From NCBI GenBank assembly GCA_034509735.1, contig JACGWO010000004.1:22983395-23047394 (forward strand): a stretch of DNA of 64,000 nt, written 5' to 3'. Below the pieces are notes generated by a model. The model saw nothing but the letters and a program-made list of their open reading frames with translations, did not search any database and was not told the origin of the DNA. This DNA comes from Sesamum alatum (Eukaryota > Streptophyta > Magnoliopsida > Lamiales > Pedaliaceae). The translations under genes were made by a program, and so were the position numbers. Positions 8,746-52,979 of the stretch are shown here, piece by piece (within the stretch, counting starts at the first letter, position 1; every line of letters begins with the position of its first letter).

Positions 8746-9234
8746 AGTAGGAATCAATTAGATTTTTTTAGACTTGCTTGTCGATCTAAAATTTCATCTG
8801 TTGGTATATCACTGAAGCTCGACTATATGCACCTTTAAACAATTTTCATTTGCTATCTCTCCCTCTCTCTAAAGCACAGACATACACCCGAATGGATTTT
8901 CTATTTCAAATTATGTTGCATTTTACTGTATTTAATATATTCATATTATATATACATAATTACATTATTTAGTTTAGGATAAATTATAATGACCTTCCTT
9001 AATATTTGTCATAATTATGATAACCCCTCGTTGTTGGGAAATACCTATTGATTTTATGGTAGTCTAACAACTAGCCCAATTCGTTAATTTTTCATCCATT
9101 TTTTGTGGTGAACTGATCAAAATGCCGTTGTGGACTATGAACTATAATTTGACTTAATTTCTAAAAATTTCTAAATTTTTTTTGCGGACTAAGTGGATAT
9201 TTTTTTTTAATTTTGAAATTTTTTCGTCCACCTT
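8746..9234. other. AT-rich spacer with a partial MITE
   Basis: No gene seen. About 8981-9130 is a degraded arm of the MITE family found at 9668-10050 and 10322-10746 (shared CATAATTATGATAACCCC, CTCGTTGTT and TTTTCATCCATTTTT blocks). Confidence 0.55.
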
Positions 9235-9825
9235 ATCCGATTTTTATTATTATTATTATTTTTTTACAGAACAAAAAAATATAACAATTAATGGCAAAGT
9301 TGATAATTCATAATCTCCTTCCCAGGATTACATAATTTCATCAAAGATCAGCGGGTGTTGATAATTTTCCTAAGGGTGAATTACAGTTACATCCCCTGAG
9401 GTTTGGCATAATTACAGATACCCCCTCGTTGTTTGAAAAATTACAAATACCCCCTGAGGTTTGTAACCGTCTAACAAATAACCCAAAATGCCCTTATGCA
9501 CTGAGTTCTTTATTTAATTCTTAAAAAATATCCGATTTTTATTATTATTATTATTTTTTTACAGAACAAAAAAATATAACAATTAATGGCAAAGTTGATA
9601 ATTCATAATCTCCTTCCCAGGATTACATAATTTCATCAAAGATCAGCGGGTGTTGATAATTTTCCTAAGGGTGAATTACAGTTACATCCCCTGAGGTTTG
9701 GCATAATTACAGATACCCCCTCGTTGTTTGAAAAATTACAAATACCCCCTGAGGTTTGTAACCGTCTAACAAATAACCCAAAATGCCCTTATGCACTGAG
9801 TTCTTTATTTAATTCTTAAAAAATA
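9235..9825. repeat. exact tandem duplication, 295-bp period, two copies
   Basis: The block from 9235 to 9529 is repeated from 9530 to about 9825. I saw no difference between the copies, including across the ATT run and the GATCAGCGGGTG segment. The unit includes the left arm of a MITE. Identity against a highly decayed background implies a recent duplication or an assembly artefact. Confidence 0.88.
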
Positions 9826-10050
9826 TTTGGACTACAATGCGCAGACAGAGACTTCTTAAGTTTTTTTACACAGAGGAGCAATAATAAAATTTGTCTCGGT
9901 TGATTTTTCTATAATTTTAATAAAAATTTCAAGGGCAAAATGGTTGAATTTCAGGCCTTTGGTTAAAAATTACAAACTTCAGGGGGGGATTTGTAATTTT
10001 TTAAACAACTGGGGGTATTGGTAATTATGCCAAACCTAAGGAGAAGTGGC
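9668..10050. mobile_element. MULE-type MITE
   Basis: The left arm GGGTGAATTACAGTTACATC pairs with a right arm reading GGTAATTATGCCAAACCT near 10020-10040. The middle shares GGACTACAATGCGCAG and CACAGAGGAGCAATAAT with the 10322 copy. The right end is eroded by a G-rich stretch (about 10065-10160). Its left arm was duplicated with the 295-bp unit. Confidence 0.65.
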
Positions 10051-30268: not shown

Positions 30269-30689
30269 TGACTATAATTTTATCTGTTTCTTTCTTATTA
30301 TTATTTTCAACAACTAATTTTAAACTAAAGTATTTCACAAAATTCGGACTTGCTTCTAAAATGCGAGAACGAGAGTTCATATTTAAAAGCTAGAGGAAAC
30401 TTGTAGTTATATTTGGAGTTTGTGACACTAAGTGTTGAAACATACAAATCAAAAGTAAGATCATTTGATATTTTTAGCTAAAACACTCAACATGTATCCA
30501 CATTAACGCATTCTTCATCCTGATCATTCCTTGGGAATAATAGGGGAAAAAAATTAGTCCATTAACTTGCTTTTCGTTCAATTTTAGTTCATTAACTTTG
30601 ATAGTTTTTAATTTTATACACTATGTTGCAAAAATGCTTCAATTAGGTCCTCCGGTGTCCGAACTTTGCTTTTGTGCCCGGGAAATAGC
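30269..30689. other. spacer with a MULE arm fragment
   Basis: No gene. About 30543-30660 resembles one arm of a MULE MITE (TTAGTCCATTAACTTGC, TTTAGTTCATTAACTTTG). Confidence 0.45.
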
Positions 30690-31860
30690 ATGTGCATTGC
30701 ACATGCTGCAAAAATTGGGGATTTTTTTCCCATGTGGCAATAAAGTATGACTTGGCATTTGAGGTGGATATTTTATCTCTTCTACGCCACATAAGCACTT
30801 ACATAGAACCACAAGATCGACCAGATTTGACCTCAAGAGTTTTTCGAGGCAAACCTCAAGATTTGAAGGATCAATTATTAAAAAAGGAAATATTTGGGAA
30901 GGTAGCTGCACATGTTCATGTCATTGAATTCCAAAAAATAGGACTACCACATGCTCATATGTTGATAATTTTGAAGTCTGAATACAAGATTACAACTCCA
31001 TATCATTTTGATAGGTTCCTTTGTGAGAACTTCCTGATAAAGAAACGAATCCCGGACTTTATAACTTAGTGATCAAACATATGATGCATGGACCTTGTGG
31101 AACTAAGAATTTTAAAAATCCTTTTATGGTATATGGAAAATGCAAATCATTATCCAAGGTCATATTGTGAAAACAGAATACAAGGTAAAGATGGCTATCC
31201 AATCTACAAAAGAAGTCAAAATGGGTTGACAGTTCAAGTCCGGAATGCATAGCTGAACAACCAATAGGTAGTACCTTATAATCATATCTCCTATCAAGAT
31301 ATAATTACCATATTAATATGGAGATATGTTCAGGAGTAACTGCAGTCAAGTACTTATACAAGTACATTTATAAAGGACATGATAGAGTAGCCATTCATAT
31401 CTCACACAATGATGATGAGAATTTAGATGATGAAATTAAACAGTTTCAAGATACTCGATGGGTCTCTACGCAGGAGGCAATGTGGAGAATATTTGAATTT
31501 AATTTGAAGGAAATTGACCCAGCAGTTATCAATTTACAGTTTCATCTTCCCAATCAACATTTCGTGACTTATTGGGCAAATCAACGGTTAGATAACTTTC
31601 TAAGGTTGGATCACATCTCAAAAACAATGCTCACGAAGTATTTTTCTATGTGCTTTACAAGTGAGAAGGCAAGAAAATATCTTTATCGGAAGTTCCTTGA
31701 GCACTATGTATGGGACAAACAAGATCACAGTTGGAGAGAAAGAAAGAAAAGACCTGTCGCCGGACGTACAAGTGTTGCCAATCCTATTAAAGGAGAAAAA
31801 TACTACCTCAGATTACTTTTGAATCATGCAAAAGACCTACATCTTTTCAAGATTTGTTAA
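30690..31860 (+). pseudogene. Helitron Rep (rolling-circle initiator) relic
   Basis: Fragments of the Helitron N-terminal and HUH nuclease regions: RPDLTSRVFRGKPQDLKDQL, GKVAAHVHVIEFQKIGLPHA followed by HML (the His-x-His metal site), then after frameshifts ICSGVTAVKYLYKYIYKGHD with the paired tyrosines, and DTRWVSTQEAMWRIFEF. The family enzyme nicks and joins single strands to mobilise the element by rolling circle. Frames are broken at about 31060 and 31320; the true N terminus upstream of 30690 is missing. Confidence 0.88.
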
Positions 31861-32930
31861 CGGCTGACAGAGTACAATGTGCAAGTTTCAAACAAGCAGC
31901 ACAAAAGAGAGGATTGTTAGAATCTGATCAAAGTATCATTGAATGTTTAAATGAAGAAATCACTTTTCAAATACCAAATGAGCTCATAAGATTATTTGCA
32001 ATCATTTTTTTGTATTTTGCACCAACAGATGTCAGAATTCTATGGGATGCATACTTCGATGCCATGTCTGAAGATTTCAAAACAAAAGCAATAACCTCAA
32101 TTGAAGACCGTGTGGCAAAAACTCTCAAAAGTTTGAGTCTTTTCTTAGAGAGTATGGAAAAAACATCATTTTGTATGATCTTCCGAGAATACCTATAAAA
32201 ATGGATGATGTGAATGGAGAATTTCCATGGAGATACAAAATGAGATGTTCATAGAAATACCATCTAAAGATTATGAAGCAGAACTAAAGTTGAATCCTAA
32301 ACAACAAAATTCCTTCTCAATGACCTTAGATACGATACAGAAAGAAAAAGGGTGGAATTTTCTTCATTGATGACCCTGGTGGAACAGGAAAAACATTCTT
32401 GTATCGTGCTTTATTAGCACATGTTAGATCAAAAAAAACTAATAGCAGTTGCAACTGCGAGATATGGAGTTTCTGTAGCTATAATGGCAGGTGGAAGAAC
32501 AACGCATTCACGTTTTAAGATACCAATAGATGCAAATGAAACTATGTCCAAGCAAAGGGGAGTTGCAGAGTTATCACGTAAAGCAAAATTATTGTTATGG
32601 GATGAGGCACCCTATGGCAAAAAGATGGGCAATTGAAAATATGGATAAATTACTTAAGGATGTGACCGAAAATGATAAAGATTTGGTGGAAATGTGATAG
32701 TTTTTGGCGGAGTTCCCAAGGCAACAATTCAACAGACGGTTTATGCAAGTATAGTAAAGTCATATTTATGGACGAAAATGAAAAGGATAACTTGGACAAT
32801 AAATATGAGGGCTCAAAATGATCCAGAGTTCAGTGAGTTCTTACTTAGAGTCGGAAATGGTGAAGAGCCAATTCAGGAAGCCACTACCTTTATATATAGA
32901 GGGAGTGGTTGGCCATCTGTAGAGTCTTGA
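31861..32930 (+). pseudogene. Helitron PIF1-type helicase relic
   Basis: After a linker (RVQCASFKQAAQKRGLLESD, PTDVRILWDAYFDAM), a Walker A reading GGTGKTFLYRALL lies near 32370-32415. Then IAVATARYGVSVAIMAGGRT and Walker B KLLLWDEAP follow, and after frameshifts KSYLWTKMKRITWTINMRAQ and FSEFLLRVGNGEEP. The C-terminal third of the helicase is missing and no Helitron 3' end is seen, so the element is truncated at about 32930. Together with 30690-31860 it is the only autonomous-type Helitron in the window. Confidence 0.88.
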
Positions 32931-36865: not shown

Positions 36866-38000
36866 GTAAGCTTCAACCTTTATCTATACCTGAATGAAAA
36901 TGAGAAAGGATCACCATGAATTTTGTCATTAGATTGCACACAAGTTCAGAAAATATGATGTTATTTGAGTAAATGTGGATAGACTGACTAAATCAACTCA
37001 TTTTTTACTTGTACGACAAGGTGATTTTTTGGATAAATTAGCTTAGTTGTACGTTTTAGAAATTATAAGATTGCATTGAACGCCTATTTCTATAGATTCG
37101 GAGAGAAATCCTCAATTTTCTTCATGTTTTTCAGAAAGTTTACAAAGGAAATTAGGTATGAAATTGCATTTTAGTATAACATTTTATCCTCAAATAGATG
37201 CATAGTTGGAAAGAACAATTCACACTGAATAATATGCTAAGAGCTTGTACAATTGAGTTTAGGGCAAATTTGAATGATTACCTATCACTGATAGAATTTT
37301 CATATAACAATAGTTTTCATTCCAGCATCAGAATGCACTCATAGGAAGTTTTACATGGAAGAAGATATTGGAGTCCAATATCTTGAGATGTTGATGGATT
37401 ATGTCAACTTTAAGGTCCCGAATTGATGCAAGAAAATAATAGACAATATACAAATAATTAGGAAGTGTTTGAAAACAACACGAGGTTGGTAGGAAAATTA
37501 CTTTGATAAACACTAAAGAGAGATGAAATATAAGATACGGAGAAAGTCTTTATGATGGTATCTTCTTGGCAAAGAATCTTAAGATATGGTAAGTAAGGAA
37601 AGTTGAGTCTGAGTTATATTGACCCATATGAAACTACGGAAAGAGTTGGACCACTAGTGAATCGATTAGTATTACCAGTATAATTATCACAGATACATGG
37701 CGTATTCCATGTTTCTATTCTACGACGATGTTGGTTGTTCTCAGTATGTTCTGCGTGAACCAAAGATAGAAATTTTAGAGGAATTAATGTGTGTAGAAGA
37801 GCCAATAGAGATCTTGATAGGAGTGCAAAAAAATTGAGAAATAAAGAGACACCAATGGTAAACTAAAGTAGAGTCATTACTCTTCAACATAGGACACTTC
37901 GGAAGTTGAGTAGAATGTGAAATAGTAGTATCCGTATTTATTCCTCGAGTGGGTAAGTTGATTAAATTTTGATGACGAAATTTTTATTAGGAAGGGAGTA
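36866..38000 (+). pseudogene. Ty3/gypsy chromovirus integrase C-terminal relic
   Basis: Heavily decayed plus-strand pol tail. Still readable: NMLRACTIEFRANLNDYLSL, IEFSYNNSFHSSI, HGRRYWSP, LRYGKXGKLSLSYI-type sequence, TERVGPLVNRLVLPV and LSQIHGVFHVSILRR. These are characteristic of Del/Tekay-type chromovirus integrases and their C-terminal extension. Stops occur every 10-40 codons. The stretch ends at a purine-rich AGGAAGGGAG tract just before TGTGACGTCC, where the 3' LTR starts. Upstream pol was lost where it meets the copia LTR array. Confidence 0.82.
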
Positions 38001-38606
38001 TTGTGACGTCCGTAGATTTTTATACTTCATTGTGGTATTAACTGATAATTATTAAGGAACTCTAAATTAATCATAAATAAATTATAGGTTGAAATTTGAA
38101 TGTATTAAATTTGCGAAATTTCAATTTTAGTCCATACGATAGGGGATTCAACACTTTTAGTCCCCTGCTTTATGATATTTCAAAATAGTCCAGAAATTTA
38201 GAAAAACTCGACACATTGAGTCCTTTACTTCATGGAATTTTCAAAATGATCCCAAAATTAGGAAAAAAACTTGACATATTTAGTCCCATAAATCATGTAA
38301 AGCAAAGGACTAAATGTGTCGAGTTTTCTCAATTTGGGACTATTGAGGACTAAATGTGACGAGTTTTTTTAATTTTGAGATCATCTTAAAATCCCGTAAA
38401 GTAGGAGACTAAATATGGTGAACCCCTATCCTATGGGACAAAAAATGTAATTTTGCCATCAAAACTTGAAGGGACTAAATTGAAGTTTCATAAAATGCTA
38501 AGGTTCAAATTATGTAAATTAAGAAAATAGGGGAAAGATGAAAATCTTATAAAAGATAAAATATAAAAAGAATAAAATAAAATAAATTGAATTTGGGAGC
38601 AGCAAC
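38001..38606 (+). repeat. gypsy chromovirus 3' LTR, left part
   Basis: Begins TGTGACGTCC immediately after the purine tract, as usual for Del/Tekay-type elements. It is interrupted by a fold-back MITE (38114-38492) and then by the hAT element at 38607; sequence resumes at 47999. The far end of the LTR is not defined. Confidence 0.68.
38114..38492. mobile_element. fold-back MITE in the gypsy LTR
   Basis: GAAATTTCAATTTTAGTCC at the left and GGGACTAAATTGAAGTTTC at the right are inverted copies. Inner arms pair too (GATAGGGGATTCAACACTTTTAG against the reverse of a CTAAATATGGTGAACCCC stretch, in shorter blocks). No clear TSD. A related half lies at about 51090-51240. Confidence 0.68.
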
Positions 38607-39494
38607 TAGGGGTGTAACCGAGCCGAGCTCGAACTGAGCTTGGCCAAATTTCAAGCTCGAGCTTGACGAGCTCGCTAGGAACAAGCTCGAGCTCGAGCAC
38701 AATATAAGGTTCTCGAGCTCAAGCTTGCCAGCCGACTCACGAGCTCAAACTTATTGCTGATATTTTATTTTAATTTTTTTTATTAAGAATATATTATTAT
38801 AAAATTATAATATTAAATGTTAATTATAAAAAAGTGTTAAAAATATATTCTACAATACTTTAATCTAACGTTATGAATATATGACATCATAATATTTTTA
38901 TTATATATCTAATATTAGTTTAATAGTAACATAATTAGTGTAAGTATAGAAAATATACATCAAATTATGTAAATACTTATACATAATTTTGTATAGTTAT
39001 ATATACACCAAATTAAAAAATATTAATAAATTTTTAAAAGAATTCAATAATACTTATAGTATGCAATTTTAAAAATATATTTTTCCAAAACAGTTTTATT
39101 TAATAATTAAATTCTCTACAAGAAAATAGCTCAATAGCAACGAAATAAAATTAGCGTCGAGCTAATTAGACAGTGAAATTCTCAAAGCTAATTTACATTA
39201 TTTAATACAATAAATTTACTTTGGGGATAAATGCAAAACGGGTACCATACTATAGGCCACTTTGCAATTTTGATACCATAATTTTCAAAAAGGCCAATTT
39301 CAGTACCATACAATGGGGAGTTTGGCAAGATTGATACCGTAGTTTATGAAAGTTGCAAATTTAGTACTTTAGTTTTGAAACTGGTAGTTTTAGTACCGAC
39401 CCTTATCTTTTGATAATATCAATTCTAGTCCCCTAAATTTATTTTTCACACGGATTTTGCCTAAATTTTAGATTTAGCATCCCTATGACAAAAA

Positions 39495-39507
39495 TGGTAT
39501 CAGAGCC
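39495..39507 (+). other. viral tRNA-Met primer-binding site
   Basis: TGGTATCAGAGCC, the caulimovirid minus-strand primer site, defining nucleotide 1 by convention. It lies within a few bases of the junction with the MULE arm. Confidence 0.85.
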
Positions 39508-39529
39508 TAGGTTTATTCAACAAATATTT

Positions 39530-40440
39530 GTTTATATTAAATATTGATATTTTATCCCTAACGGATGAGATCTTTGAAAAGTATGGAACCGACGAGAGTT
39601 CGAGTTATAATGAAAACAGGGAATATTTTTCATATTCTGAAAATACAGAAAAAAAAAATTTTTCTTATGAAAATTCTTAAGAAAATTGCAACAGTCCGAG
39701 AATGATTGACTTGAATCTTCTTACCGAAGAAGAAAAGAGAGGAATGGTTGAGAAATTACCAAGTCCGACAGGCACTATCAGGAAATGCCTTCAGACGTCT
39801 ACATGCAGCTGAGATCCATGGTAGAATCCTAGCCAGGAGAAATGGAAACGGGTAAACTCCTGAATCAATATAGTTTTAAAAACAATGACTAAAGGAACTG
39901 ATTGGAAGGAACTCGAGCCGGACACCTCAAAATTCTCTCAAGATCTAAGAGAGATCCAGAAGACAGTTCAAGACTATGGACATAGGTTAATCCATATACC
40001 TATGAAAATAGACCTCTTGAGCCAAAAGATGGATGAGATCCTGAAGATCATTCCAGATCTACAAGGATCTTACAGATCTGAAAGTTGAAGTCACAGATCT
40101 GAAGAGAAACCAAAGGAATACCCCTGAGACATCCAGATCTCACCAAGAACCCATTAGGGACGCCTTTGAACCAGTACCTCTTCTGCACCAGAAGGGAAAG
40201 GCGACGGAGATCGTAAAGCCTGTACCTCTTCGCCTTTTCCCAACATGGGATTGTAGATCTAGTTAACGTCCAAACCAATGAGATCGCTCCAGCTTTACCA
40301 CTGTCGGAGGGAAGTACAGGCTCAAATAATCCCTCACAGGATCATCCTATGAGAGAAGGTACGGATTTCCACACCAACGCCACTCCAACGTTCGTGGGAA
40401 CCAAATTAAGTGAAAATCTAGGACGGAATCCACGACGAAT
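39530..40440 (+). pseudogene. viral N-terminal coding region (function uncertain)
   Basis: Open pieces include an acidic Ser/Tyr/Glu-rich stretch (39560-39680) and a 67-codon frame at 39885-40088 with a heptad-like pattern (REIQKTVQDYGHRLIHI, KIDLLSQKMDEILKI) suggesting a coiled coil. It could be the N-terminal part of the coat-protein polyprotein or a separate virion-associated protein. Frameshifts near 40088 and 40260 prevent a decision. Confidence 0.5.
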
Positions 40441-41440
40441 GCCTGAAAAATACACCATGGGCAAGATCTATGCTTCAGCCCTTACATCCTTATGGCACCA
40501 TACTCAACCTGGATGTCATTGACTTTCAAAATATTGAAAAGTTGATAGACGAATGTGTTGCAGCCATGAAGATACAGCAACCACATTAGAACTTGACAAG
40601 GAGAACTTCATAAGGTTATTGGAGTTAAGCTTGGAAGGTTCTGTGAAGGTCGGATGGGATAACACCCCAGGAGACACCAAAGCAAGTATCCTAGTCGGAA
40701 AGTCCAAAAGTGCTATCGCGGAATGACTCGAAAGGTTGATTAAAATACACTTTATCGAAGATGGATACTTCAAAGGAAGTAGAGCCGAAAAGGCTAGAGA
40801 GTACTTGCGGTAGATGAATATATCTATCGGTTCCGCAAGTTTTTTTTCCAAAGTGGAGTAATGACTGAAATAGCTGCTCCAATGTTCTTTGCAAAAATCT
40901 GCAGTCCATAGAGGGAAATGTTGATACAATCATACAAAGTACCCGAAGGACAACTGGATTCGGTGGCAAGAAGAATGTCTTTCCTCAAAGTCAAACTGAA
41001 GGATTGGTGTTATCAAGCATCCGTCGAGAAGAACATGAAAAGACTGAGAGGTAAGATTAGAAAAAACCCTCTCCATTGTGATAATAACGATTTTTCAACC
41101 ATTATAGGAGAATCAAGCGAGCGAAAGAAGAGGAGAAAGCAGGGTAGTGACTCTTATTCCAGGAGTTCCAGAAAATCCTCTTTCAGAAGGAGATCATGGT
41201 GGTCCAAATCAAAGGCCACATCATACAAATCTGGACAGGGAACAGGACGAACAAGAGCTTCATCCCAGGGATCTCGACGAATAGATGCAAGATCCACAGG
41301 GAGAACTCCTCCGAGAAGAACTTTCAGATGAGCCCATACCCGAGCCAATGAAAGTTTCAATTGTAACTGCTGGACGTGCAGCGCAAAAGGACATATATCA
41401 CCAGATTGCCCGCAAAAACGTTGTGAATTACGATAGTTTG
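40441..41440 (+). pseudogene. viral coat-protein region with zinc knuckle
   Basis: Recognisable from SVKVGWDNTPGDTKASIL, a KAREYL segment and a 41-residue stretch around KVKLKDWCYQASVEK in the 40918-41331 frame. These are followed by a strongly basic tail (RKKRRKQGS, RKSSFRRRSW). A CX2CX4HX4C knuckle, CWTCSAKGHISPDC, lies at 41368-41409 in another frame. The family protein forms the capsid and binds nucleic acid through the knuckle. At least three stops or frameshifts break it (40589, 40722 and 40814 areas). Confidence 0.8.
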
Positions 41441-41805
41441 AAGCCACTGATGACATTCTTGATACAGTTTACTATGGCAACTTGGTACCAATCTACCAAT
41501 TTGAATATCTTCCCTAGGATGAAAGCATATACGAGAAACACATAGAAAGTGATTTGGATGGATCTTCAACCGAGTCAAAGTAATTACAACGAAGGAGATA
41601 GGCTTCAAACCTCAGATAGCCTATCAGGATTCTTTTCAATGATGACGGTGTCAAATAAAACCATGGAAAGAATCATGAGACAAGACTCTAATCTCAGCCT
41701 AGACGACGACTTTAAGAGATCAATAGAGTCCTCAACCAGATAGGGCTGAACCACAGGAAACATCATATAATCTACAAGGTAAGTTCAAGTGGGTTTGCAA
41801 TTCCT

Positions 41806-42536
41806 ATGGAACTTACTGGTAATGTGATGGAAATGCAACTTATTCATAAAGAAGAAATTCTTGAAGAATTAAGTAAACTCAGGGAAGAAGAAGCGGTTAC
41901 TATGAAATGGATCCACATAGGAGCTATTGAAGTAGTAATAAAAGCAACTTTTAAGGAAGGAATTGATTCAAAAATACATTTATCAATAATGGATAGAAGA
42001 ATCAATAACTTAAGAGATGGTTGTCTTGGGACAATGATAGGAAATTTGTATGCAAGAAAATTGATGTTTGACATTCATCCTAAGATAGCATACAACCTAG
42101 CAGACCAAGATTTCAGTCCAATCTTAACCCTTCATCAGGATTTTAAAAGAAAATATCTTATGAAAGATGTGATCACTGCCTACAAAGGAAAAGAGCAGGG
42201 GTTGATTAAAGCCTTAACCCCTCCGGCTATTAGGCTTGATAATGTGAAACTTAGATTCCCTGAAGGCTAGAAATAAATTAAAGTTATATTTGACATCACT
42301 GAAAAGGAAAACTATTTTTCTTGTGACGACTTATATCATTTGCAACAACCTGTGTGGGAAAATATGACCAAATGCTAGAAATAGCAGGCCATGAGATATT
42401 TATTACAGAAATTGCAGGACGAGAAAATGGGATAATGACTTTCGGGTTAAGTTTCCTTGAAGGTCATAAACCATGGGGAAGAAAAGGTAATGATATGGAA
42501 TTCAGTCTATATGGATATACTATTAGAATTGAATGA
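41806..42536 (+). pseudogene. viral movement-protein region
   Basis: The 41806-42270 frame has KWIHIGAIEVVIKATFKEG, a DRRINNLRDGCLGTMIGNL segment and FDIHPKIAYNLAD, the pattern of caulimovirid 30K-type movement proteins. It stops at 42270, and related sequence resumes in the 42354-42536 frame (DQMLEIAGHEIFITEIAGR). In the family it forms tubules through plasmodesmata. The internal stop makes it non-functional as it stands. The protease frame overlaps its end by four bases (42533). Confidence 0.82.
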
Positions 42537-42849
42537 CTAGCCCATTTTCTATATACATATCTGTCGGTATGTTGTATGAACAATATAAGTCAGAATATTT
42601 TGCAGCTTATATTGACTCAGGATCAAGAATTTGCACGGCAAAACCCGGTGTATTCCTTAGCGAAGCTATGGAATCCTTACCCATTATTGCAGGAAGGGAT
42701 TTTTCACAAAAAAATCTAGTACTCAATAAGGGTATACGAGAAGCAAAAATCATGATTGGAGGAGTATTTGGAACACCTTGGTTCAAGGTAAAGACGCCTC
42801 CTATTTACTTTCATGATATAGGAGCAGATATTTTGCTAGGCAATAATTT
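42533..42849 (+). pseudogene. viral aspartic protease region, interrupted by a MITE
   Basis: Frame starting MTSPFSIYISVGML with the active-site motif AAYIDSGS and the typical downstream FHDIGADILLG. The catalytic Asp-Ser-Gly is intact. The frame is cut at 42850 by a 980-bp MITE; viral pol sequence resumes at 43830. The protease would open the pol polyprotein upstream of RT. Confidence 0.84.
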
Positions 42850-43829
42850 GGAAAAATAGCATTTTTAGTCCCATAACTTAGGTACCATCCATTACGGGAT
42901 TAGCACTTTTGGTCCCGTAACTTACAAAAGTTAGCAGTTTTCGTCCTCCCCTATTTTTCCGTTAGTCTTTTAACGGAAATGGCCATTTGGCCATTAACTT
43001 TTTCAAATTGAAGAAAAAATTGGCGCCCTTTGTGCTCGGTATCATATTTGGCGGGAATATAATATTGAGAGCTAAAATAAAAAATTGAAGGAGATTAGGA
43101 CAAATAAAGGTGATTTCTATCCTCTCTCGCAAAGAACAATCTTTCCTTCTTTAATTTTATTTATGTTGCAATTTATCATTTTCTACGAACTCTGTAAATA
43201 TTAGAACAAGTGTTGACCCATAAAAAATTCAAGTAACCCAATGTAACCACATAAATTTTTTTTTATTGCATAAATTACAAAAATTCAAGCTCTTGTAATT
43301 GAATATGTACTTGATTTCTGTAAATATTCAAGTAGATATTTATGCAATTTATGTAATTGAATTTTTGTAATTTATGCAATTTATGTAATTAATTTTTTGT
43401 AATTTATATGCTTACATTAGGTTACTTGAATTTTTGTGGATCAGCACTTGTTCTAATATTTACAGAGTCCGTAGAAAATGATAAATTGCAACACAAATAA
43501 AATTAAAAGAAAGATTATTTTTTGTGAGAGATGATAGAAATCACCTTTATTTGCTTTAATTTCCTTCAATTTTTTATTTTAGCTCTCAATAGTAGTTATA
43601 TTCTCGCCAAAAATGATCCCAAGCACAAAGAGCGCCAAATATTCCTTCAATTTGAAAAAGTTAACGGCCAAATGGCCATTTTCATTAAAAAAAAACTAAC
43701 GAAAAAATGGGGGAGGACCAAAAACTGCTAATTTTTGTAAGTTACGGGACCAAAAGTGCTAATCCCGTAATGGATGGTACCAAAAGTGAAAAGGCCCTAA
43801 AGTTATGGGACCAAAAATGCTATTTCCCC
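42850..43829. mobile_element. MULE-type MITE in the viral pol region (980 bp)
   Basis: Ends GGAAAAATAGCATTTTTAGT and CCAAAAATGCTATTTCCCC are inverted, with arms pairing for about 400 bp (TTACGGGATTAGCACTTTTGG against its inverse at about 43750). Perfect 9-bp TSD, CAATAATTT, at 42841-42849 and 43830-43838. The interior is also largely palindromic (GTAATTTATG repeats). It arrived after the virus. Confidence 0.93.
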
Positions 43830-43838
43830 CAATAATTT

Positions 43839-44890
43839 CATACAGACCTTTGCATATGTACAGGATAACCACAAGAATCTGTTGAATTTTACTACTAACT
43901 GTGGCAGTGAAATACAAGTTTTGCAAAGAGAGAAGGCATTTAATAGGATAATGCCCATTAATTTTCGCAATAAAGGTGGTGATGATGCCAAATTCATCAA
44001 AAAATGCAGGATAGAAGAAAATTTGGTAAGGCTCTTTTGTCTTTCAGGTAACAGGGTTTTCAGTGACCCTCCTGAAGAAGATCTTAGGATCTTGAAGGAA
44101 GTTATACAAGAGTGCAAGTCATTGGACATAAACGGAGAAAGTAAACTTTCTCTCGAGAATGTCAAGAGGCTTATCCAGAGGAATTTCAATGAAAATCCTT
44201 TGGCATGTTGGGATAGAAACAAGATCGAGGCTACTCTAAAGGTCAAAGAGGAATACAAGTATGAGTATGTCCAATACAAGCCTATCCAAATGAACATGGA
44301 GGATAAGAAAGATATGCAGGAGATCATCAAAGAGCATATCAATCTTAGACTCATCGAGCCTGGAGTCTCTGCCTATAGTAGCCTTGGTTTTCTGGTAAGA
44401 AACCATGGTGAGATAAAAAGAGGTAAACCCAGGTTAGTTATTAACTATCAAGGCATTAATAGAATATTAGAGTTTGATGGTTATTATATCCTAAGTAGAG
44501 AACACTTAATTGATGCATTAAAGGTGCGAAAGTGTTTTCCAAATTCAATTGAAAATCTAGGTTTTATCAGATTAAGATGAAAAATGATTCAAAGAAATAC
44601 ACTGCATTTTCCGCACCACAAGGACAATATATCTGGAATGTACTGCCTATGGGACTTGCCAATGCACCCCAGATATTTCAAAGAATAATAATCTTTTCAA
44701 AGATTATCTAGAGTTTATGTTTGTCTACATAGGCGACATCTTGATTGTATCCAAAAATATACAGGATCATATTAGACATATTGAAAAAAAATTTAATGCA
44801 TACCATAAAGAGGGATTAGTGCTTTCTAAAAATAAAGCCATCATAGCTGTCAATAAAATTGAATTTCTATAAATTCTTATTGACGAAAGC
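43839..44890 (+). pseudogene. viral reverse transcriptase region
   Basis: A long frame (43882-44580) leads into the RT fingers with LRLIEPGVSAYSSLGFLV and GKPRLVINYQGINRI, followed by frame breaks near 44540-44580. Downstream the palm motifs are present in other frames (PLPMGLANAPQIFQR-like sequence near 44640-44690, and the catalytic box at 44732-44749). The box reads YIGDIL instead of the usual YIDDIL, replacing a catalytic Asp by Gly. In the family this enzyme copies the pregenomic RNA. Confidence 0.88.
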
Positions 44891-45552
44891 AGGTATTGAG
44901 TTGTAGGAGCATATTGTAGAGAAAATTTACAATTTTCCTGACATTCTTAATGATAAGAAGCAGCTTCAAAGCTTCTTGGGAGTTGTCAATTTTGCAGGAA
45001 TCTTTATCAATGATCTTGCAAAATACAGAAAGGATTTCCGACCACTTTTGAATGAAACAGAAAGTTCAACGTGGAAATTGGAGAAAATTCATACACAAAA
45101 GGTTCATGAGTTAAAACAGGTTTGCAATAACCTACCAAAGACTGCAATCCCACAAGACGAAGATGAGTTGGTAGTCTATACGACGCCAATCATTACACAT
45201 GGGCAACAGTGCTCATGAGAAAGACAACTACTAGTGAAGAACAATGTAGATATACAGGAGGGTTGTTCACTGAGCAACAAGCCAAACTATGGCATATCAA
45301 CAACAAAGAATTCTTTTGCGGTTTGGAAGGCTTTCAAAAAGTGGCCTTTATTTTTACTGTCTAAAGAATTTACGTTGAAAGTTGATAATACAAATGTTGA
45401 AGCTTTCCATAAAAATAAACTTGAATCAAAAATTGAGAAAGCACATATTATTAGATGGAAAGCAGAATGCCAATATTATTGTTATAATATTGTCATTATC
45501 AAATCTCATGAAAATGTTCTTGCAGATTTCTTGACGAGAGATGGAGGCATCT
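44891..45552 (+). pseudogene. viral RNase H region
   Basis: After the RT connection (LQSFLGVVNFAGIFI), fragments on frames 44976-45218 and 45234-45554 include LKVDNTNVEAF, IIRWKAECQYYCYNIVII and KSHENVLADFLTRDGG, the usual end of caulimovirid RNase H with its C-terminal Asp motif. A frameshift near 45200 and further changes break the domain. Confidence 0.84.
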
Positions 45553-46820
45553 GAAGCAGACTCTATCATTATAAGACTCAAGCACCTCAGGGAGAACCTT
45601 GAGGAGATTGATAAGAGATTTGGACAGTTGACGGTCAAAGCTCAAATAGCTGGCCAAGTCCAACAAGCTGATCTTGACACTGTCCAGATCGCCATTAGGA
45701 GTACCAAACTAGCCGCGGGCTCGTTATGGAACGACCTACTAGAACCAATTCGAAAGGCATCATCTTCAATGATGGCCCGAGAATTAAGAAAGCAGGGCTC
45801 TAAACCTGCAATTAGAGAACAGGGCTCTTAACTTGTAACGGCAGATTCAAGTACTGCTTGCACGAGGCCATCGCTAGACTCTGGTCAAAAGGCAAAAAGT
45901 TGAGTTACAGGAAGTGCAAACTCCTGATAATTCAAGTCAACCCAGCGCCTAGGAAGAGATTAACCTTAGGCCGATGACAGGCACTTCCAAGGGTTAATAT
46001 AATGAATCTTTATCTTCTATTTCTGCTTGGCAGGGTTATCAGAGATCATGGGAAAAACTTATTTCCTGAAGAGGCATCAATCCAAGCAAGACCATCATAG
46101 ACACATTAGGAAATATAAAGAACCTGGATGCTCGAAAGGTCTAACCCAAAGGATGTACGAGAATGGTAGGACTTTAGAGCCCTCGCTTCAGTTCATACTA
46201 TGTCACCTGGATTTTCTGAAATCTCAAAAATTCCGGAATGGATCAGTGGGGCGTTTAAGACGCATGGCAGAACAATCCCCACCTCAAACAAGGAGACATT
46301 TTGGAGCTTAAGTTCATTTCAATAGCTCCAGAAATCACAGGAAATGGTCTCATCCAACATTTCATTTTATCAATTTAGAGAGACCTGACATTGTAGTGTT
46401 TAATAGAGTCAAGGATGCCACAGGAGAAGCTCTCCTAGTATCTTCCCTCAGTGAAGATGACATATCTACCAGAAGAGCTTGGGGGTTCTGGGTCTGTCTC
46501 ACTGAGATGGACAAAGTCAAGTATCCATTTAAAATATTTTCAAATAAATTAAATGGATCATTCTTGTTAAATTCCATGACGAAAAAAAAGCACTGAGTTT
46601 GCAGAGAGCTTATTCGAAAAGAAAATAAGTTGCCTGCAACGGAGGCCACGAGGAAGAAGGCATGCAACATTATGCATGTTGGACAATTACATAACCACAT
46701 ATGCCCCTTTTGTGACAAGCAGGAAAAGCCCTTGTTCGGAATGAAGATTCGGGTAACCCAAAATAAACCCGAACCAAAACTAGAGAACGGTAAAAGAAAG
46801 AATTTTTACAGAACGAGGTA
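45541..46820 (+). pseudogene. viral 3' ORF region (possible transactivator position)
   Basis: A 96-codon frame starting ATG 45541 overlaps the end of the pol frame (45554) by 14 bases and has a coiled-coil look (HLRENLEEIDKRFGQLTV). Fragments follow to 46820, including DDISTRRAWGFWVCLTEMD and a C-x2-C containing HNHICPFCDKQ. By position, after pol and before the promoter, it could be the transactivator/inclusion-body gene of cavemo- or solendoviruses. I recognise no diagnostic motif, so this is inference. Confidence 0.5.
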
Positions 46821-46971
46821 AAAACCTCAAGATGTAAAAAATCAAGAAGAAGACTGTCGACAGAAGAAGACAAAAGCGCCAATAGTCAGAAAAGCAAAGG
46901 ACATCAGCTTGTAAGCACATAGCCGACAAGCCATAACGACAACAGCTGAAAAGTTGAGAGGCAAAATTAGG

Positions 46972-47252
46972 TGACGAACGCAGTGACGTCATCCAAAAAT
47001 AAGGTTGGAGTCCTAGTTTGAAGTCCGCGGACCATTATAAATTGAGAGATAGGAACAGATGGAGGACATCAAAAAACTTCTCCAACTCTTCAAACAATAA
47101 GCAGAGTCTTTCAAATTTCAGAGTTTTAAGTCTTTCAGTGTATGGGGATTTTCCCAAAGAGTCAAGTCCTCTTTTCATGAGAGGCTAAGAAGTTGTCTCC
47201 TCCTATGGAGGATTAAATATTTATGTAATATTTCAAACATTTCTTCAATAAA
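46972..47252 (+). promoter_or_regulatory. viral pregenomic-RNA promoter and poly(A) signal
   Basis: Two TGACG motifs at 46972-46976 and 46984-46988, 12 bp apart, form an as-1-type element like that of the CaMV 35S promoter. A TATAAAT lies at 47036-47042, and AATAAA at 47247-47252, about 210 bp downstream. This matches the caulimovirid arrangement, in which polymerase passes the poly(A) signal once before using it. The motifs look intact although the genes do not. Confidence 0.82.
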
Positions 47253-47553
47253 GTAAAGGCTTCTGTCCAATATTGCTCATTCAAAATTTTATTAAGTCTA
47301 TGTTATTGGAATACTTTTACGGTCTAAGGTAGGAAACGAAATACGGCTGTGTTGTTTGTTGTTGAAGGAGCCAAGGACCTGCGAACCATCTGTTGTGGTA
47401 GTGTGGTTGGAAGAAGTCCGTAAAACTGAGGACTTGGAAAACCTGGCAACAAAGCGGTCAAACCAAGGTATGAATTTATGGAGGCTTAATTTTATTTTTG
47501 GAAGCATGTTGGGCATGATCAGAGTAGAATTGTATGGTTATTATTTCTAAAAA
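47253..47553 (+). other. viral leader sequence up to the right junction
   Basis: Non-coding sequence following the poly(A) signal, with several short AUG-initiated frames as in caulimovirid leaders. It ends at an A-rich stretch (47550-47570) where the MULE right arm begins. The exact junction is not certain. Confidence 0.55.
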
Positions 47554-48006
47554 TTAAAAAAAAAAAAAAGTTTTGAAACCAAAAACTGATACTATTTCAA
47601 AGATGTGGGACTAAAATAAAAGTAAAGTACCTTATTTGCAAGTCTCTGTAAACTACAATATCAAAAATTGGCTATTTTAAAAGTATGATATTAAACTTGC
47701 AAAAGCCCCCATACTGCGGTACGAAAAATGCAATTTTTCTCATTTACTTTGTAATGCATTTAGCAATGAAAATCTACTTGATAATGAGTTTAGCAACGAA
47801 TTGTTTAAAATATATATTAGATAGTGTATATTAACAATGAAAATTTTACTTATTAATTAACTCAACACTGATTTTAGTATCAAATATTTTCGTAACTATT
47901 GAGCTAATTTTTTATTTTTTATTTTGTAGTGATTATATAATATATTAATTTAATAAAATAGATAAACAGAGCTTTTTTCCTAGAAGTTGCCACCCCTAGC
48001 AGCAAC

Positions 48007-48480
48007 ACATATTGCCACCCCTAATTACCCATTAACTAGTAATGGGCCACCACACGTCACTTTCAACACAAATTGAGCAAGCCTTAAACTTATTAAATTA
48101 ACACACATACACATAAACACGTAGTATTCCGGTTGAGTCTCCTCGATTTCGGAAGCTTGCCTTGCCGTTTAAAATAGGTAACGAATTACGGTTTTAGAAT
48201 TTTTAATTAATTCATAATTTTATTATTTGGTTAATGAATTTATTAAATACATTTGATCTATATCCAGTTTAATGTTTCGAGAAATTTAATAGATTTGATT
48301 ATATATTAATTGATGATTGATTAAATGTTCAATTTGAGTTGAGAGTATTATAACAAATTAATTTAATTACTTTAATTACTTAATTTATTAGATTTACTCA
48401 TTACTATAATTAATTTGTTTGATTTAATCAAATTTAATAACTACATACTTAATTATATGTTACACAATGTTTAGTCCCAT
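48007..48480 (+). repeat. gypsy chromovirus 3' LTR, right part (approximate)
   Basis: Resumes immediately after the hAT TSD and has GGTTGAGTCTCCTCGATTTC and AACGAATTACGG-type phrases common near the end of Del/Tekay LTRs. The right limit is arbitrary; no terminal CA plus TSD could be confirmed. Confidence 0.4.
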
Positions 48481-50539: not shown

Positions 50540-51240
50540 TTACAAGATGGAGAGGGTATAATAATGCAGCCTCTGAGAAGCCAACATTCCAAAGAAACAT
50601 GAGAGATGACTGATGTCGCGACAGAGGTGTTTTATCCAATCTTTTTAGGCATATTTAAGTGGTGCAGTTTTTCTGTTGAGTGCAGAAGCAAGCTACATAA
50701 AGCAAAAATGAGACTAGTTTCCAAGATGTTTACAAACCCATCCCAGAAAAAGATAAAGCACTAGAAACCAAGACCCCTTTTGCATGATAACCTAAATATG
50801 GAGTGTGGGACTGTGGGAGTGACCATATTTTGGGGAATGAAAGCCAGATGAAAAGCTTCAAACCAGAGATAAAAGTAAAAAGTTGTCGTGAAACACAAAG
50901 AATATTTAACATATATATATATAAACACGCAATATTAAAGCTAAAGCAAAAGGCCCATCGTGCGATGTGTCCCTTGTTTGCAGGGCGTGTACTAAAAAAC
51001 CCCTCCTTTTAAATTCTCCCATTTTCCCTTCTTCTGATTTCGCCAATTCCCTGCGAAATCACTGTCTCTAATCTCATGAAATAGAGGTTCAATATTTTAA
51101 AATTTTTAAAATGATTCTAAAATTGAAAAAATATCAACAGATTTAATTCCATAAATTTTGTAAAGCAAAAAACTAAATGTGTCGAGTTTTTTTTTTAATT
51201 TTAGAACAATTTTGTGAAACAGAGAACTAAGAAAAAATGT
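50540..51240. other. low-complexity spacer with a partial MITE
   Basis: No gene recognised. About 51090-51240 resembles half of the fold-back at 38114-38492 (AAGCAAAAAACTAAATGTGT). Confidence 0.45.
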
Positions 51241-52696: not shown

Positions 52697-52979
52697 CTCT
52701 ACAAGAAAATAGTTTAATAACTACGAAAAAATTTGATATTAAAATCAATATCGAGCTAATTAGCAAGTAAATTTTTAATTGCTAATTTATACTATTTAAT
52801 ATATATATATATTAAACAACTCGTTGCTAAATTCATTAGCAAGTAAAGTTTTCGTTACTAAATGTATTAGCAAGTAAATTTCTTGTATTAAATAATGTAA
52901 ATTAGCAACAATAATTTTACTTGTTAATTAGCTTGACGCTAATATATTTTCATTGCTATTGAACAATTTTCTTGCAGTG
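52697..52979. mobile_element. CACTA-type MITE (283 bp)
   Basis: Ends CTCTACAAGAAAATAG and CAATTTTCTTGCAGTG (inverse CACTGCAAGAAAATTG). The body contains repeated TTAGCAAGTAAA and GCTAATT motifs shared with the larger element at 39114-47931. TSD AAG / GAG is only a partial match. Confidence 0.72.

What the first reader, a model, noticed from the sequence alone, without database searches (positions are those of the whole stretch)
38001..48480. Six-layer nest of elements around an endogenous pararetrovirus
Each layer has its own class-typical target duplication: gypsy LTR, then hAT-like element (8-bp GCAGCAAC), CACTA-like element (3-bp ATT), MULE (9-bp ATTTACTTT), caulimovirid copy, MULE MITE (9-bp CAATAATTT). 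The order of arrival is therefore readable directly, and the virus integration is bracketed in relative time. I know of no described nest with this composition.
Basis: partly seen in the sequence, partly recalled or inferred. Interest (0 to 1): 0.88.

Follow-up and report, generated by a model that had tools for sequence, protein, structure and literature searches.

The report
Plant virus carried by a transposon
In this sesame-like plant genome a virus copy and the transposon around it are not two separate arrivals but one mobile unit that has jumped to many places, which would make it a plant counterpart of the fish virus-transposon fusion Teratorn.

Summary
The nest is real, but two of its layers are one. 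TSDs sit as described: hAT-like GCAGCAAC, CACTA-like ATT, MULE ATTTACTTT, inner MITE CAATAATTT. Three insertions have empty-site sister copies; hAT-into-LTR has none yet. The key correction concerns MULE and virus. In the window's own genome, 31 of 39 other copies of the viral leader (best-scored of 419 candidates) run unbroken through the 'MULE right arm' to within 14 bp of its terminus. The 39 other best-scored left-end matches (of 421) start at position 1-8 of the MULE and run on into the virus. 20 of 26 copies have their own 8-9/9 identical 9-bp TSD; 0 of 5000 permutations reach that. Nine of 13 copies lack much of the interior but keep both ends. So a caulimovirid, opened at its tRNA primer site, lies between MULE inverted repeats and has spread as a DNA transposon in a Sesamum-like host. 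At this locus both arrived in one jump, so the virus's own integration is not bracketed here. Searches of the held papers showed no such plant element.

The parts
38002..38598 (+). Left part of a Ty3/gypsy (chromovirus-like) 3' LTR, TGTGACG... start; decayed integrase-like reading upstream (about 36900-38000)
   Evidence: Read by eye; Pfam found no domain in 4 pieces, so the gypsy label is recalled/by eye. No second copy of this LTR appeared in the window self-comparison.
48007..48465 (+). Right part of the same LTR (end ...TGTTACA, approximate)
   Evidence: end inferred, not tested.
38112..38495 (+).
   Evidence: Arms align; relatives at 51101 and in L043.
38599..38606 (+). hAT TSD copy 1 GCAGCAAC (copy 2 at 47999-48006)
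38607..39113 (+). hAT-like non-autonomous element, left part (right part 47935-47998); TAGGGGTG...CACCCCTA
   Evidence: sister copy without the CACTA at L020:1002-1548, aligned over 550 of 571 joined bases
39114..39222 (+). CACTA-like MITE, left part (right part 47751-47931); TSD ATT at 39111-39113 / 47932-47934
   Evidence: empty sisters at window about 52697-52979 and L064:496-763
39214..39222 (+). TSD copy 1 ATTTACTTT of the composite viral MULE (copy 2 at 47742-47750)
39223..47741 (+). Composite mobile unit: MULE TIR - caulimovirid - MULE TIR (interrupted by the inner MITE)
   Evidence: Same two ends in other copies, most of those tested with their own TSD
39223..39494 (+). MULE left arm / TIR
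39495..39506 (+). tRNA-Met primer-binding-site-like TGGTATCAGAGC (motif recalled), left edge of the viral part
   Evidence: ICTV profile: discontinuities at the tRNA-Met priming site
41368..41409 (+). CCHC zinc knuckle, as in caulimovirid coat proteins (recalled)
   Evidence: Read
41716..42267 (+). Movement protein piece (broken; about 250 bp shorter than L009 and L015 near 42168)
   Evidence: PF01107 E 3.5e-20
42533..42856 (+). Aspartic protease piece
   Evidence: PF02160 E 8.6e-7
42850..43829 (+). Foldback MULE-type MITE inside the viral part; TSD CAATAATTT 42841-42849 / 43830-43838
   Evidence: empty site in L009 and L015
43840..45551 (+). Reverse transcriptase and RNase H pieces (several frames)
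   Evidence: PF00078 E 9.6e-6 (25.9 bits, below its cutoff 29.6), PF17917 E 7.7e-6
47000..47470 (+). Viral promoter/leader region
   Evidence: 40 scored matches of 419 candidates in own genome, for 47000-47400
47570..47741 (+). MULE right arm / TIR (edge towards the virus not fixed, 47470-47570)

Best explanation
Shown: 39223-47741 is one copy of a repeated composite element in which a caulimovirid sequence, opened at its tRNA primer site, lies between inverted repeats of about 190-260 aligned nt of a Mutator-like element (MULE). The unit is found at many loci with both MULE ends, mostly with a private 9-bp TSD, and often as internally deleted derivatives. Inferred: (1) once, linear viral DNA joined into a small MULE, perhaps by break repair in its palindromic middle; (2) MULE transposase supplied in trans by an autonomous relative then mobilised the composite, giving probably hundreds of copies (about 420 first-look candidates for either end, 40 scored each); (3) here one copy jumped into a CACTA-like MITE that already sat in a hAT element in an old gypsy LTR; (4) a foldback MITE later jumped into the viral protease/RT region. 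I did not find the transposase source or a virus-free MULE copy.
For: Right end: 31 of 39 other leader copies run without a break through the arm to within 14 bp of 47741, L007 does so after a ~670-bp insert, 7 stop short; the leader query held no arm sequence, so this set was not chosen for the arm. Left end: 16 of the first 20 copies start at 39198-39243 in the stretches fetched; 39 of 39 other scored matches start at query position 1-8 and cross the left junction to position 438 or beyond of 478 (these are the best 40 of 421 candidates, a ranking that favours full-length matches). TSDs: 20 of 26 at >=8/9, 14 of them 9/9, differing between loci; 13 of 650 mismatched pairs reach 8/9, permutations reach at most 7 of 26, 0 of 5000 reach 20. 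TIRs: 69-80% identity over 189-256 nt in 14 of 14 rows aligned; 7 of 21 rows had been dropped for a weak or cut left arm. Internal deletions with both ends kept: 9 of 13 copies looked at; sizes 2.4-18.4 kb in 25 copies. None of the 39 copies runs from leader into the primer site within the stretch fetched beyond it.
Against: 6 of 26 copies show TSD identity of 7/9 or less. The leader does not clearly share the two-subfamily pattern of the arms, and Mantel correlations of leader with either arm (r 0.09, 0.05) and with the 5' viral part (r -0.04) are nil, although left and right arms agree (r 0.69) and left arm with 5' viral part weakly (r 0.54, 49 of 2000 permutations). This points to recombination or TIR conversion between copies, or to lack of signal. 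No MULE transposase was seen in the 10 pieces of the unit scanned; no autonomous partner or virus-free copy could be sought because the genome search did not complete. 3 of the first 20 copies (L008, L009, L015) showed no left end in the stretches fetched.
Confidence: 0.92

Rival explanations
1. One reading: a MULE inserted into the CACTA element at this locus and a virus later integrated into that MULE, here.
For: TSDs and TIRs of the MULE are present at this locus.
Against: Both MULE-virus junctions recur at tens of other loci, with different TSDs.
Confidence: 0.02
2. Repeated independent integration of the virus at the same position in many MULE copies (a site preference, for instance a cruciform at the MULE centre).
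For: ECVs are thought to enter at palindromic breakage-prone (TA)n sites (PMC10377300 section 3.1). Leader distances do not follow arm distances.
Against: The 39 other best-scored left ends cross the same left junction in the same orientation. Internally deleted copies keep both ends. Left arm and 5' viral part covary weakly. Leader and 5' viral part do not covary with each other either, so the leader result does not discriminate.
Confidence: 0.04
3. Bivalent element: the composite also replicates by viral reverse transcription, with MULE ends serving as its integration system, in the way proposed for Teratorn.
For: 7 of the 20 pol comparisons give dN/dS of 0.23-0.37, below the neutral simulation (0.62, 5-95% 0.51-0.78 at kappa 4.4 and p 0.08; 0.55, 0.44-0.71 at doubled kappa). 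The leader seems to evolve apart from the arms, as strand transfer there might do.
Against: Pol comparisons with the window copy give 0.52-0.65 and MP comparisons 0.51-0.82, neutral-like. Only 5 other copies were used, the two pol queries overlap, and codons were guided by tblastn. Viral evolution before capture, or TIR conversion, would explain the same results.
Confidence: 0.2
4. Segmental duplication or assembly artefact spread the junctions.
For: None seen.
Against: Homology ends at the MULE termini at both sides with private 9-bp repeats; the window holds no N; scored copies lie on 14 contigs.
Confidence: 0.02

Closest known systems
Teratorn (piggyBac-alloherpesvirus fusion, medaka; PMC5601938)
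   Different: Host kingdom, virus (reverse-transcribing caulimovirid) and transposon superfamily (MULE) differ. Teratorn encodes its transposase; none was seen here in the pieces scanned.
Pack-MULE
   Same: MULE ends carrying foreign sequence (PMC10741241 passages); mobilised in trans (recalled).
   Different: Known cargo is host genes or gene fragments; here the cargo is a virus sequence of about genome length.
Endogenous caulimovirids / EPRVs
   Same: Viral genes, primer site and decay are typical; ends at replication discontinuities are described (PMC526188 section 11).
   Different: EPRVs are described as integrating by break repair, often near (TA)n and in tandem or rearranged arrays, or with LTR retrotransposons (PMC10377300 section 3.1 and passages). 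Here copies have MULE TIRs and TSDs, and no leader-to-primer-site concatemer was seen in the stretches fetched.
Banana eBSGFV with flanking Ty3/gypsy (as told in PMC10377300)
   Same: Proposed virus-transposon chimera.
   Different: LTR retroelement, two allelic copies, a hypothesis only; here a DNA transposon with many TSD-bearing copies.

Membership tests
Mutator-like element (MULE) | 9-bp target site duplication | tested here: met
   20 of 26 copies at >=8/9, permutation maximum 7 of 26
Mutator-like element (MULE) | Long terminal inverted repeats | tested here: met
   189-256 nt aligned at 69-80% in 14 of 14 rows aligned, 7 of 21 dropped before for a weak or cut left arm
Mutator-like element (MULE) | Encodes a MuDR-type transposase (autonomous members) | not tested
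   None appeared in the 10 pieces scanned, which do not cover the whole unit; a partner search in the genome was not run
Caulimoviridae | MP, aspartic protease, RT and RNase H domains | tested here: met
   PF01107, PF02160 and PF17917 above cutoff; PF00078 25.9 bits, below its cutoff of 29.6
Caulimoviridae | Met-tRNA primer-binding site and genome length 7.1-9.8 kb | tested here: inconclusive
   PBS-like 12-mer at 39495. About 7 kb of viral sequence in this copy, which has lost some; three composites measure 7.9-8.0 kb including arms
Cavemovirus/Solendovirus | Placement by RT phylogeny | not tested
   CP before MP before PR-RT-RH suggests it (recalled); no named virus appeared among the 120 hits listed and the structure models were too poor
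hAT | 8-bp TSD and short TIR | tested here: met
   GCAGCAAC / TAGGGGTG 8/8, though 19 such pairs arise in 200 shuffles. Non-autonomous
CACTA | 3-bp TSD and CACTA-like TIR | tested here: met
   ATT; CTCTACAAGAAAA / CACTACAA
Teratorn-like virus-transposon fusion | Virus sequence exists mainly or only inside the transposon | tested here: inconclusive
   31 of 39 leader copies continue to the TIR, 1 does so after an insert, 7 stop before it. Internal viral probes were not run genome-wide

The most novel reading that the evidence does not exclude
A plant pararetrovirus that lacks an integrase gained a chromosomal life style by fusion with a Mutator-like transposon, and for part of its history used both: viral genes kept under selection while MULE ends gave it insertion at many sites.
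Probability: 0.2. Interest if true: 0.95.

Novelty: new variant of a known kind. Interest (0 to 1): 0.86.

Why it matters
How caulimovirids, the vast majority of which lack an integrase domain (PMC10741241 section 3.1.4), enter plant genomes and reach high copy numbers is open: PMC10377300 calls the mechanisms speculative, and PMC9719215 offers repeated integration or activation and reintegration cycles (passage). Here a class II transposon gives a direct, testable route: copy number reflects jumps of one composite, not many infections. It also extends virus-transposon fusion from fish herpesviruses to plants and reverse-transcribing viruses. It warns that nest-based dating of EPRVs can be wrong unless other copies of the junction are checked.

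Tried and rejected
Rejected: independent virus integration at this locus. Led nowhere: IMG/VR scans with the MP and RT pieces, which find close relatives only, confirmed none. AlphaFold models of the MP and RT pieces were of low confidence (pLDDT 39.5 and 43.7), so no fold search was run. Pfam on 4 gypsy pieces found nothing. The fold of the leader is not better than shuffles (z -0.24). A primer-site repeat at the right viral end is not better than shuffles (475 of 500 reach it). Automatic two-group clustering of arms first isolated one bad row, L073, which was dropped before the repeat; the repeat gave a smaller group of 9, of which I used 7 chosen by their TIR ends. My notebook says 32 of 39 right ends within 10 bp; recounting gives 31 of 39 within 14 bp, plus L007 after an insert. 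The CACTA coordinates used and the CACTA join used were off by a few bases; searches have the right ones.
Full report
What was claimed. I checked the letters. The TSD pairs are exact: GCAGCAAC at 38599 and 47999, ATTTACTTT at 39214 and 47742, CAATAATTT at 42841 and 43830, ATT at 39111 and 47932 (read). TIR starts fit the classes: TAGGGGTG both sides for hAT, CTCTACAA/CACTACAA for CACTA, GGGGATAAATGC/GAGAAAAATTGC for the MULE, and 22 of 25 bases for the inner MITE.

How strong the TSDs are alone. Not very. In this AT-rich region, dinucleotide shuffles give about 43 pairs of a 9-bp repeat with a 2-bp inverted end, and the 8+8 pattern of the hAT appears 19 times in 200 shuffles. The layers therefore needed empty sites.

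Empty sites. (a) A sister CACTA-like MITE at about 52697-52979 on the minus strand lacks the MULE: two alignments, to 39116-39221 and to 47742-47913, meet in it at the TSD (sequence; the joined alignment used flanks 3 bases off). L064:496-763 is a second one, aligned with the right join. (b) A hAT copy at L020:1002-1548 lacks the CACTA and is continuous over the junction with a single ATT; it aligns over 550 of 571 joined bases, and its own right end was not established. (c) In L009 and L015 the viral sequence is continuous with one CAATAATTT (alignments overlap at about 42842-42849 / 43831-43838). Of 338 fetched proteins 44 carry the DILLG/LLGN-type motif; 33 of these read NNF.Q-like through the site and the other 11 diverge or break differently. 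(d) No intact LTR copy was found, so hAT-into-LTR rests on TSD, TIR and nesting.

Host and virus. MP and RT pieces have 137 and 251 database relatives at E<=0.001; the 120 listed for each are named mostly from several Sesamum species, with single hits from Phlomoides and Paulownia. The window lies in an assembly of 527,674,879 bp in 89 contigs, so the host is probably Sesamum or a close relative. Pfam finds MP, caulimovirid protease, a weak RT and RNase H. A zinc knuckle lies upstream of MP, so the order is CP-MP-PR-RT-RH; this resembles Cavemovirus/Solendovirus from memory, untested. The frame is broken in many places.

The turn. Searching the genome with the viral leader (47000-47400) gave 419 candidates, of which the best 40 were scored; the 39 other than the window are 86-92% identical. 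I fetched the downstream side of all 39. L007 does so after a ~670-bp insertion. L005, L068, L070, L071, L072, L073 and L074 stop earlier. The query held no arm sequence, so this is not selection. None of the 39 runs from leader into the primer site in the stretch fetched, as a concatemer would. On the left, 16 of the 20 copies of the first batch start at 39198-39243 in the stretches fetched; L006 was added coordinates, and L008, L009 and L015 showed no left end there. A second search with 39223-39700 gave 421 candidates and again 40 scored; the 39 other than the window start at query position 1-8 and cross the left junction. That list favours full-length matches, so it shows that the junction is common, not that every copy has it.

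TSDs of the composite. For the 26 copies with both ends in hand (window included), 20 have at least 8 of 9 identical flanking bases, 14 have 9 of 9, and the words differ between loci. With the same freedom of offsets, 13 of 650 mismatched pairs reach 8; when right ends are permuted the maximum is 7 of 26 and 0 of 5000 permutations reach 20. A first, looser test on 17 copies gave 11 against 16 of 272 mismatched pairs. The failures are L005, L011, L014, L017, L021 and L022; L014 looks like a one-base indel by eye. The arms of the 14 rows aligned are inverted repeats (69-80% over 189-256 aligned nt; 7 of 21 rows had been dropped for a weak or cut left arm). Nine of 13 copies checked have lost much of the interior but keep both ends. 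Lengths run from 2.4 to 18.4 kb in 25 copies, three of them 7.9-8.0 kb. These are the marks of a class II family with internally deleted derivatives, here of the MULE type.

Hence the reading. The composite arrived in the CACTA element as one insertion. The viral part begins at a Met-tRNA primer-site motif (39495), and caulimovirid DNA has a discontinuity at the priming site of the minus strand (ICTV profile, whole text read). This suggests that linear viral DNA was joined into a small MULE once, before amplification. Integration near palindromic, breakage-prone DNA is a published idea (PMC10377300 section 3.1 read), and ends near discontinuities are described for ERTBV (PMC526188 section 11 read). 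That founding step is inferred: I could not look for a virus-free copy because the genome search did not complete.

Results that do not fit simply. Arms form two subfamilies: for 7 copies grouped by their TIR ends, 0.074 within and 0.168 to the rest at 47572-47660 (a split made on the arms themselves). In the viral leader the same grouping shows weakly or not: 0.082 against 0.105 (38 of 2000 shuffles), 0.099 against 0.098 (1164 of 2000), 0.103 against 0.119 (43 of 2000). Mantel tests show left and right arms agreeing (r 0.69, n 13) and left arm with 5' viral part weakly (r 0.54, n 13, 49 of 2000), but the leader agreeing with nothing, not even the 5' viral part. TIR conversion with related MULEs, recombination, or star-like divergence could do this. 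Between copies, pol dN/dS runs 0.23-0.65 and MP 0.51-0.82, from 5 other copies and the window, against simulated neutral values near 0.62 (5-95% 0.51-0.78, p 0.08) or 0.55 with doubled kappa. Seven of 20 pol comparisons are below 0.38; those with the window copy are 0.52-0.65. Selection on viral genes during amplification is possible, not shown.

Known kinds. Teratorn is the closest: a herpesvirus inside piggyBac ends (abstract and passages). Pack-MULEs carry host genes (passages). Searches of the held library, judged from their listings and from passages of seven of the papers, showed no such plant element: endogenous pararetrovirus + nested + MITE (5 papers), Sesamum + Caulimoviridae (1 crop-virus review, listing only), endogenous caulimovirid + integration + transposable elements (9), two of pararetrovirus / Mutator-like / nested insertion (22, 15 listed), sesame genome + pararetrovirus (0), pararetrovirus + Pack-MULE (3), Caulimoviridae + terminal inverted repeat + target site duplication + virus (2). 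Most subscription papers and repeat libraries were not searchable, so an unnamed repeat-library entry may exist.

Noticed in passing
window 38112-38495: Foldback MITE in the LTR half, a further element of the nest; relatives at 51101-51190 and L043:261-587.
   Followed up: partly
window 52697-52979: Sister CACTA-like MITE without the MULE insertion, about 4-5 kb downstream of the nest in the same window.
   Followed up: yes
window 42164-42172: The window's movement protein region lacks about 250 bp present in L009 and L015.
   Followed up: partly
L007 (G000 C81:25583192): About 670 bp inserted between viral leader and MULE right arm.
   Followed up: no
L064 (G000 C79:48381771): Composite copy beside another CACTA-like copy; 18.4 kb between its ends with a perfect 9-bp TSD, so probably heavily nested.
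   Followed up: no
right arms of L003-L072: Two TIR subfamilies whose left and right ends go together (gcaaaa with caattttctc, gctttaa with gcatctcactc).
   Followed up: partly
window 30689-32198: Open frames that look like a Helitron N-terminal/helicase remnant (by eye and recalled, no family search).
   Followed up: no
window 9234-9826: Perfect 298-bp direct duplication (100% identity).
   Followed up: no
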